The notes beneath the pieces are model-generated. The model saw only the letters and a list, made by a program, of their open reading frames with translations. It was not told the DNA's origin and searched no databases. A stretch of 64,000 nt of DNA from assembly GCA_012103255.1 (NCBI GenBank), contig WLXD01000001.1:1129501-1193500 (forward strand), read 5' to 3'. The translations under genes and the position numbers were made by a program. Source of the DNA: Acidobacteriota bacterium. Lineage in GTDB: Bacteria > Acidobacteriota > UBA890 > WLXD01. Positions 53,131-54,734 of this stretch are shown here, in pieces (position 1 is the first letter of the stretch; each line of letters opens with the position of its first letter).

Positions 53131-53184
53131 GAGAGTGCCTTCTTCACACGGTGGAAGTCGGAGGTTCGATTCCTCCCGCGCCCA
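53131..53184 (+). pseudogene. 3'-half of a tRNA-Val(CAC)-like gene (5' half missing)
   Basis: Anticodon arm CCTTC-TTCACAC-GGTGG (one T-T mismatch), 5-nt variable loop AAGTC, T-arm GGAGG-TTCGATT-CCTCC, acceptor 3' strand CGCGCCC + A; no matching GGGCGCG/D-stem immediately upstream. Confidence 0.65.
53151..53166 (+). repeat. 16-bp direct repeat, copy 1 (tRNA variable loop/T-arm)
   Basis: GTGGAAGTCGGAGGTT. Confidence 0.9.
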
Positions 53185-53721
53185 CTCCTCTCCGCCCTTG
53201 TTACCGACCGAGGACAGAACTCCGAGTTCACGGCCGACGCCGCATGAGCGAAGGCCGCCTGCAAGGCCGAGCTTCACCGGGACGGGGGTAGTGCGTCCAA
53301 GCGGGAGAAAGGTTATCTTTAATCGCGAAATCGACGGCCCCGAGACCGGGAGACTGCAGACGAAGCCTTACGCAAAGTCAACCTCCACAGCAGCACCAGT
53401 GGGATGTTGGCACCCACGAGCACCGACGTGGGTTAGGATACATTTCATCCCGCCCGCCTGGGCCAACCGAGCAACCACGAGAGCATGAGTAGCGAACACG
53501 ACACGCCATTGCGCAGCTGGGTACCACCGGTCCTGACCGTTATAGAGTCCTCGGGGCGCACAAATGGACGAGGCACCGGTGTCGCAAATACAGGCACTGA
53601 AGTAGACATGAGGAGGGCAGACCCAACCCCACCCACCTTCACGGCGGAGGTAGGGTTGTGCTCTTTCGGTCCTGGGAACGCCGCCGGAGCGTCCTAGCGG
53701 GTTTTCCGAGGCTTGGGCCGG

Positions 53722-54672
53722 CTAGCTCCCAGTCGGGTTGGTTGACGGCCAACTCGCGGTCCAACGCGCACAGTACTGCCCAAGCTTGACAGGGTCAGGC
53801 TCTTGCTCATAAAGCCGGGCCGCCCGCTGCACGAATCTCTCGATGGCTGAATCTGCGATCCGCGATCCCGCTGGACTGAAGTGCACGCCCAGGAACTCGA
53901 AGCCGCGCTCGATTCTCCCGATGAATGTCTTGTCGGGATGTTGCTCCAGGGCCAGATCGGCGAGGACCTCGTTCATCGCCTTCACCGCACGCCGGAGCTT
54001 CCATCGGGTCGGTGCCAGGATGACGATGTCGTCCATGAAGCGAACGTAGTCGACGTCCTTCCGCTCCAACGCCTGGTCCAGTTCCGTCAAAAAGAACGCG
54101 CCGATCAGCGGGCTGAGTGAGCAGCCCCGATAGATGCCGGTGCGGTTGTCTGCGAACAGGCCGCCCCACTCCACCGTGTAGCGCAGGTACTGCCCCAACA
54201 GGTTGAGCACCGCGCGATCAGGCACGAACCTTTCGATTCGTTGCAGCAGTAGCTCATGGTCGATGGAGTCGTAGTAGGCGGCTACATCGGTGCGAGCCAC
54301 GAAGCGATGCTGCGGCAGCCGCTGGCGGACGGCAGCGATCGCTCCATGCGCGCCGCCGTAGCCTTCGACGTGCGTGCAGCGCGGCGAGATCGGCAGAGTG
54401 TCCTGGAGGGTGATCGCCAGGGCCTTGAGTACCAGTGCATCCGCGGCGCGCCAAACGTGCAGGGTTTCGCCCTCGTGAGTGGTGATCCGCTGCACGGACG
54501 AGAGGCGATAGGTGCTGGCGCGCAGCTCGGTCTGGATGCGGGCCCGCTGCCTATCCCAGTCGTGTCGCAATGCCCAGACATCTGCCTGCGCAGGGTAGTT
54601 CTTACGGCGCTTGCACAGCCACTCGAACGCTGCGGCGATCACTTCGTCCGAGGCCACTCGATCGATCATCAC
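53722..54672 (-). CDS. Reverse transcriptase, compact group II-like/unclassified bacterial RT
   Basis: ARTDVAAYYDSIDHELLLQRI, GIYRGCSLSPLIGAFFLTELDQAL, YVRFMDDIVILAPTRWKLRRAVKAMNEVL, LEQHPDKTFIGRIERGFEFLGVHFS; 316 aa, no obvious maturase/endonuclease domain. Confidence 0.93.
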   Translation of the reverse strand: MMIDRVASDEVIAAAFEWLCKRRKNYPAQADVWALRHDWDRQRARIQTELRASTYRLSSVQRITTHEGETLHVWRAADALVLKALAITLQDTLPISPRCTHVEGYGGAHGAIAAVRQRLPQHRFVARTDVAAYYDSIDHELLLQRIERFVPDRAVLNLLGQYLRYTVEWGGLFADNRTGIYRGCSLSPLIGAFFLTELDQALERKDVDYVRFMDDIVILAPTRWKLRRAVKAMNEVLADLALEQHPDKTFIGRIERGFEFLGVHFSPAGSRIADSAIERFVQRAARLYEQEPDPVKLGQYCARWTASWPSTNPTGS

Positions 54673-54718
54673 CCCAGGATGGCCTGTGACAAATCCTGTG
54701 ACAATTCGGGATCAACTA

Positions 54719-54734
54719 GTGGAAGTCGGAGGTT
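54719..54734 (+). repeat. 16-bp direct repeat, copy 2
   Basis: GTGGAAGTCGGAGGTT, exact copy of 53151-53166, 46 bp upstream of the RT start and 13 bp from the radical SAM stop codon. Confidence 0.9.

What the first reader, a model, noticed from the sequence alone, without database searches (positions are those of the whole stretch)
53151..54734. Reverse transcriptase segment bracketed by an exact 16-bp direct repeat derived from a tRNA-Val 3' half
GTGGAAGTCGGAGGTT occurs at 53151-53166 and 54719-54734, flanking the RT gene (53722-54672) and ~0.55 kb of non-coding DNA. Copy 1 lies inside a tRNA-Val(CAC)-like 3' half. Copy 2 has only the 16 bp, 13 bp short of the radical SAM stop codon. A 16-bp exact repeat at this spacing is not expected by chance. 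It looks like target-site or attachment-site duplication, or RT priming/template use at a tRNA. I see no integrase.
Basis: partly seen in the sequence, partly recalled or inferred. Interest (0 to 1): 0.85.

Follow-up and report, generated by a model that had tools for sequence, protein, structure and literature searches.

The report
Protein-diversifying reverse transcriptase in tRNA cassette
The repeat is a scar left when a small mobile DNA cassette used part of a valine tRNA gene as its docking site, and the reverse transcriptase it carries belongs to a little-studied family found here to sit beside genes for surface proteins or small secreted peptides whose adjoining sequence is hypervariable, which suggests a new way bacteria rapidly diversify proteins.

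Summary
The 16-bp repeat is real. It belongs to a longer copy of the 3' half of the genome's own tRNA-Val(CAC) gene. The genome holds nine such half-tRNAs in one 17-kb array, and three related RT copies lie beside such sites. A same-genus genome has an intact tRNA-Val, a short cassette without RT or integrase, and a second tRNA half; another same-genus genome has the empty site. So the repeat is an attachment-site scar of mini-cassettes, and the RT is cargo. tRNA priming by the RT is not supported. The 'non-coding' DNA holds a small lasso-peptide-like precursor gene convergent with the RT. The RT is class UG4. In most UG4 loci compared, sequence just past the RT 3' end is hypervariable while the RT is conserved; many neighbours are surface proteins (PEP-CTERM, DUF1554, fimbrial) or lasso-like precursors. 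In two sets of near-identical Escherichia plasmids, recent substitutions cluster in the first ~300 bp past the RT. No template repeat and no clear adenine bias were found, so a standard diversity-generating retroelement is not supported. The hypervariation is shown; that the RT causes it is inferred. No UG4 function was found in the papers searched.

The parts
53132..53189 (+). tRNA-Val(CAC) 3'-half copy (copy 1 of the repeat), attachment-like site; contains the 16-mer at 53151-53166
   Evidence: Near-identical to the true tRNA-Val(CAC) at C4:316454-316527 from the D-arm to the CTCCT just past the tRNA end
54719..54734 (+). Truncated second copy (16 bp), broken at the T-loop
   Evidence: Exact match; the array site C1:719457 is broken close to the same point
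54683..54718 (-). Remnant of the shared cassette end with TTGTCACAG direct repeats
   Evidence: Same sequence beside RT copies B and C, a SnoaL cassette in G001 and a secreted-protein-like cassette at C7:14762-14892
53722..54672 (-). UG4-class reverse transcriptase (316 aa)
   Evidence: PADLOC RT_UG4 E=2.3e-117; Pfam RVT_1; catalytic Asp residues conserved in alignment A1
53485..53697 (+). Convergent lasso-peptide-like precursor gene (W-x-x-P-x-L leader), proposed target
   Evidence: Related precursors beside RT copies B and C and at five RT-less places in the genome; similar ORFs beside UG4 RTs in L042, L050, L137, L168, L179
53319..53665 (.). Hypervariable interval relative to RT copy B
   Evidence: No alignment to copy B at the settings (a weak 64% stretch), although the RT side (53666-54705) is 95.5% identical and the distal side (53145-53318) is 84.6% identical
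53145..53318 (.). Conserved distal part of the RT cassette, up to the tRNA half
   Evidence: 84.6% identity to copy B

Best explanation
The window holds one of three related mini-cassettes in this genome. The cassette has a ~130-bp conserved end next to a tRNA-Val(CAC) 3' half that acts as its attachment core; it has no integrase and presumably is, or was, moved in trans by a tyrosine recombinase that crosses over near the tRNA T-loop. This copy lies just past the 3' end of a radical SAM gene, where one site is reduced to 16 bp. Its cargo is a UG4 reverse transcriptase plus a convergent lasso-like precursor gene. I propose that UG4 RTs cause local hypermutation of the DNA just past their own 3' end: the RT copies a transcript that runs past its gene into the neighbouring gene, with many errors, and the cDNA replaces the resident sequence by recombination. 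No separate template repeat is needed. Shown: tRNA origin, empty and filled sites, shared cassette end with three kinds of cargo, hypervariable interval beside the RT in several taxa, recent substitutions concentrated there in two plasmid sets. Inferred: that the RT causes it, the self-template route, lasso maturation, and the trans-acting integrase.
For: Att scar: empty site in G002 and filled site in G001 at tRNA-Val; nine half-tRNA sites in one orientation within 17 kb, RT copy C bracketed by two copies identical over ~49 bp; shared cassette end with RT, SnoaL and secreted-protein-like cargo. Diversification: L203/L204, 12 substitutions in 8.8 kb, all at 5076-5273, RT stop at 4963, six amino-acid changes in the next gene; six STEC plasmids whose substitutions within the 8.9-kb locus (up to a 1-nt indel in two of them) are only at 5203, 5268 (three alleles) and 5276, RT stop at 5077, with 2 scattered substitutions in the rest of the ~84-kb plasmid pair compared apart from one tra-region recombination tract; Luminiphilus paralogues with RT 0/900 differences, then 36-58 per 100 decaying to 0, then identical again; further close pairs drop from RT-level to saturated divergence just past the RT. 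Targets: 18 of 52 convergent ORFs PEP-CTERM, 4 DUF1554, 2 Lcl_C; fimbrial operons; lasso-like precursors and lasso B2/C-type genes in this genome.
Against: No experiment links UG4 activity to mutation. The STEC plasmid pair also shows a recombination tract at traS/traT-traD, so clustered substitutions can arise without an RT. Pair L202/L212 has only 1 of 5 substitutions in the interval, L164/L165 have 0 of 3 in the first 800 bp past the RT, and several pairs are identical throughout. In many diverged pairs the far side is saturated to the end of the compared DNA, which fits a change of neighbour gene as well as hypermutation. No integrase with matching arm sites was found. Lasso assignment rests on a leader motif and separate B2/C genes 68 kb away; copy C's precursor has an early stop.
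Confidence: 0.64

Rival explanations
1. Att-like mini-cassettes only: the repeat is a tRNA attachment scar and the RT is a passenger; variability beside UG4 RTs comes from diversifying selection and ordinary recombination or gene replacement, not from the RT.
For: Adhesins and surface proteins often vary by selection and recombination; most changed codons in the L203/L204 next gene change the amino acid; a recombination tract exists elsewhere on the STEC plasmids; some diverged pairs stay saturated far past the RT.
Against: The steep change sits just past the RT 3' end in several phyla whether the neighbour is convergent or co-directional; some silent positions also vary; three alleles at one site among six plasmids; same-genome Luminiphilus paralogues return to identity beyond the interval.
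Confidence: 0.26
2. The tRNA half is a primer-binding site: the RT primes on tRNA-Val(CAC), and the repeats arise by retrotransposition, as in LTR retroelements.
For: The tRNA half is antisense to the RT gene, the orientation of a primer-binding site.
Against: Copies continue into the genomic flank CTC.. and lack the complement of CCA; copies extend into the D-arm; SnoaL and secreted-protein-like cassettes have the same cassette end without RT; 12 T-arm-like hits in 1.0 Mb of UG4 loci, none systematic.
Confidence: 0.04
3. A classic diversity-generating retroelement with template repeat, variable repeat and adenine-directed errors.
For: RT beside a hypervariable part of a surface-protein gene; in the recent pairs most amino-acid changes are in NNY codons, as AAY templates would give.
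Against: No template repeat within 4 kb of the RT in the loci scanned, on the whole 42.5-kb plasmid, or elsewhere in the E. coli collection holding STEC719 at blastn sensitivity; substitution spectra show no clear adenine excess; the RT matches UG4.
Confidence: 0.06

Closest known systems
Diversity-generating retroelements (Bordetella phage BPP-1 type; PMC12875486)
   Same: RT beside a gene for a surface or receptor-binding protein; a localised hypervariable segment
   Different: UG4-class RT; no template repeat found; no clear adenine specificity; variable interval starts at the RT 3' end and in several pairs decays with distance; the accessory gene avd was not looked for
UG4 reverse transcriptases (PMC4244168, PMC8934634)
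   Same: The RT matches the UG4 model; fimbrial genes were reported near UG4 in 66% of complete-genome cases
   Different: No function or hypervariation was described in the passages read; here convergent PEP-CTERM, DUF1554 and lasso-like neighbours are added, and UG4 relatives outside Proteobacteria
Integrase-less elements at tRNA genes (CIME type, from general knowledge) and tycheposons (PMC10872708)
   Same: tRNA at the border, cargo between att-like sites
   Different: Much smaller (0.6-5 kb against 4-200 kb for tycheposons); no recombinase in the cassettes seen
Lasso peptide precursors (PMC10368454)
   Same: Leader resembles YxxPxL with Trp for Tyr; Transglut_core3 and Asn_synthase genes present in the genome
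   Different: Precursors scattered and partly in RT cassettes; maturation not tested

Membership tests
UG4 reverse transcriptase | Best match to the UG4 profile over the whole RT | tested here: met
   RT_UG4 E=2.3e-117, next best 4.7e-42
UG4 reverse transcriptase | RT catalytic aspartates present | tested here: met
   D129 invariant, D214/D215 at least 90% conserved and present in the window RT
Diversity-generating retroelement | Template repeat and variable repeat pair | tested here: not met
   None convincing by self-comparison of 160 loci, scan of five plasmid loci, whole plasmid, E. coli collection including STEC719
Diversity-generating retroelement | Adenine-directed substitutions | tested here: inconclusive
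   A-involvement close to expectation in most pairs, somewhat above it in a few; without a template it cannot be scored directly
Diversity-generating retroelement | Hypervariable segment of a target gene next to the RT | tested here: met
tRNA-integrating element (att duplication) | Intact tRNA, element, duplicated tRNA 3' end; empty site in a relative | tested here: met
   At tRNA-Val in G001 and G002 for a SnoaL cassette with the same cassette end; not seen directly for the window copy
tRNA-integrating element (att duplication) | Own or associated integrase | tested here: not met
   Only four PF00589 matches in the genome, none near the window, the array or tRNA-Val
LTR-type retroelement with tRNA primer | Primer-binding site complementary to the mature tRNA end including CCA | tested here: not met
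   Flank is CTC.., no CCA complement
Lasso peptide precursor | Leader motif and B/C maturation genes in the genome | tested here: inconclusive
   W-x-x-P-x-L leader; PF13471 and Asn_synthase genes at C1:1251548-1253992; product not shown
Integron | IntI integrase and attC sites | not tested
   No attC model was run; the sites seen are tRNA-derived

The most novel reading that the evidence does not exclude
UG4 reverse transcriptases are a widespread class of protein diversifiers that need no template repeat: they copy the transcript of their own 3' flank with many errors and write it back, diversifying fimbrial adhesins, PEP-CTERM and lectin-like surface proteins and, in this genome, the core of lasso-like peptides.
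Probability: 0.5. Interest if true: 0.93.

Novelty: new variant of a known kind. Interest (0 to 1): 0.78.

Why it matters
If UG4 RTs mutate the gene beside them, bacteria have a second RT-based diversification system besides DGRs, present on Escherichia plasmids, whereas DGRs are described as absent from key bacterial models (PMC12875486). It would give a function to an RT class for which none was found here, explain the reported link of UG4 to fimbrial genes, and offer a compact natural mutator. The half-tRNA cassettes are a smaller result: short gene cassettes moved at a tRNA without their own integrase.

Tried and rejected
tRNA primer-binding site: rejected by flank sequence and by cassettes without RT. 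Half-tRNA as a general UG4 feature: T-arm scan of 160 loci gave 12 hits in 1.0 Mb, three of them in the own-contig locus L120. Direct repeats around other UG4 RTs: found in only 5 of the 48 loci checked. Adenine-biased TR/VR pairs by self-blast and by a permissive scan: none convincing near the RT. Average base depletion past the RT: no clear shift over loci; the low-T stretch past RT copy C was seen by eye only. Rfam on the interval: nothing above threshold. UG4 in phages: only distant RTs, below 30% identity in the rows read. Paper searches on UG4 with integrons, and on RTs with lasso peptides, PEP-CTERM or fimbriae, returned no report of UG4 hypermutation in the lists read; the library lacks most subscription journals.

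Full report
1. The observation. The 16-mer is exact at both places and unexpected by chance. Genome-wide it occurs six times, because it is part of the 3' half of tRNA-Val(CAC), whose intact gene is at C4:316454-316527. Copy 1 in the window matches that gene from the D-arm to a few bases past its end (53132-53189); copy 2 is a 16-bp piece broken at the T-loop. In the array, site C1:719457 is also broken in the T-arm, there by a gene fragment that looks to me like DUF2326.

2. What the repeat is. Half-tRNA-Val sites stand in one orientation at nine places in C1:718914-735953. RT copy C lies between two copies identical over about 49 bp, 1,713 bp apart. In same-genus genome G001 an intact tRNA-Val is followed by a cassette and a second tRNA half (589-bp period); in same-genus G002 the tRNA-Val is followed directly by the same flank. 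The G001 cassette carries a SnoaL-like gene and no RT. Its end, about 130 bp with TTGTCACAG repeats, is the same as the leader of RT copies B and C, is truncated in the window copy, and recurs at C7:14762-14892 after a secreted-protein-like gene and tRNA-Phe. So the repeat marks mini-cassettes that use a tRNA attachment core. No integrase is close; movement in trans is inference.

3. What the RT is. It is a UG4-class RT with paralogues of 96% and 77% identity. Convergent with it lies a 70-aa ORF with a W-x-x-P-x-L leader; relatives stand beside RT copies B and C and at five places without RT, and similar ORFs stand beside UG4 RTs in five other loci, four of them near Asn-synthase-like genes (L042, L168, L179 by Pfam; L050 by eye). 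The genome has Transglut_core3 and Asn_synthase genes of lasso type 68 kb away. Between RT copies A and B the interval 53319-53665 does not align although both sides do.

4. UG4 RTs elsewhere. 160 loci were fetched (the two collections overlap in part). 111 were long enough to list the longest ORF past the RT: 84 on the opposite strand, 27 on the same strand; not all of these are real genes. Of 52 convergent ORFs scanned, 18 match PEP-CTERM, 4 DUF1554, 2 Lcl_C, 2 eCIS_core. Enterobacterial plasmid copies mostly sit in fimbrial operons, often with the next gene on the same strand; a Salmonella copy is convergent with an inverse autotransporter gene.

5. Hypervariation. Which pairs are informative: L203/L204 and the six STEC plasmids L200, L201, L208-L211. 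L203/L204 differ by 12 substitutions in 8.8 kb, all within 5076-5273. Among the STEC plasmids only 5203, 5268 and 5276 vary by substitution within the 8.9-kb locus (L210 and L211 also carry a 1-nt shift at about 5874, past which they were not compared base by base). In STEC719 against STEC1116 over the rest of the plasmid there are 2 scattered substitutions plus a recombination tract at traS/traT-traD. Pairs not informative or contrary: L202/L212 has 5 substitutions, 1 in the interval; L207/L219, L045/L136, L056/L167 and L156/L157 have none in the compared part; L164/L165 have 3, none in the first 800 bp past the RT. Diverged pairs: L202/L205, L213/L215, L063/L064, L095/L098, L058/L169 and L096/L099 show a conserved RT, high divergence past it, and a later decline; other diverged pairs stay saturated to the end of the compared DNA, which may be a different neighbour (the output was cut, so not every pair was read). 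Chance estimates for clustering (about 1e-18 and 1e-6) assume independent substitutions and were made after seeing the clusters.

6. Mechanism. No template repeat was found and spectra show no clear adenine excess, so a standard DGR is not supported. I propose self-templated error-prone reverse transcription of the RT's own 3' flank. This is inference; RT dependence is untested.

7. Scope. The organism of the window's genome was not given; its contig matches WLWF01000001.1 by length. Literature statements come from PMC8934634, PMC4244168, PMC10368454, PMC12875486 and PMC10872708.

Noticed in passing
C1:718914-735953 of G000: Array of nine half-tRNA-Val sites, with protein-kinase genes and a 1,354-aa ORF among the genes between them; several sites share a second type of flank on the other side.
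   Followed up: partly
window 52970-53103: Long inverted repeat (GGCGGGGCGGGCATGCCGGTG .. CACCGGCATGCCCGCC) just left of copy 1.
   Followed up: no
window 47508-52837: Row of prepilin-like genes (GFTLVEV start), the last one running towards the RT cassette.
   Followed up: no
L091, L096, L099, L110, L112, L114, L119: UG4 RT reading frames continue about 480-2,900 nt past the RT domain, possibly fused to the neighbour protein.
   Followed up: no
L152 and one other locus of alignment A2: The convergent neighbour of the UG4 RT may be an eCIS_core protein (2 of 52 ORFs match; the members were not printed, L152 is my reading by eye).
   Followed up: no
L063, L064, L081: Other short repeats flank the RT unit in Luminiphilus and Xenophilus.
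   Followed up: no
C8:136534-136836 of G000: RT-less lasso-like precursor about 200 bp from a tRNA-SeC gene.
   Followed up: no
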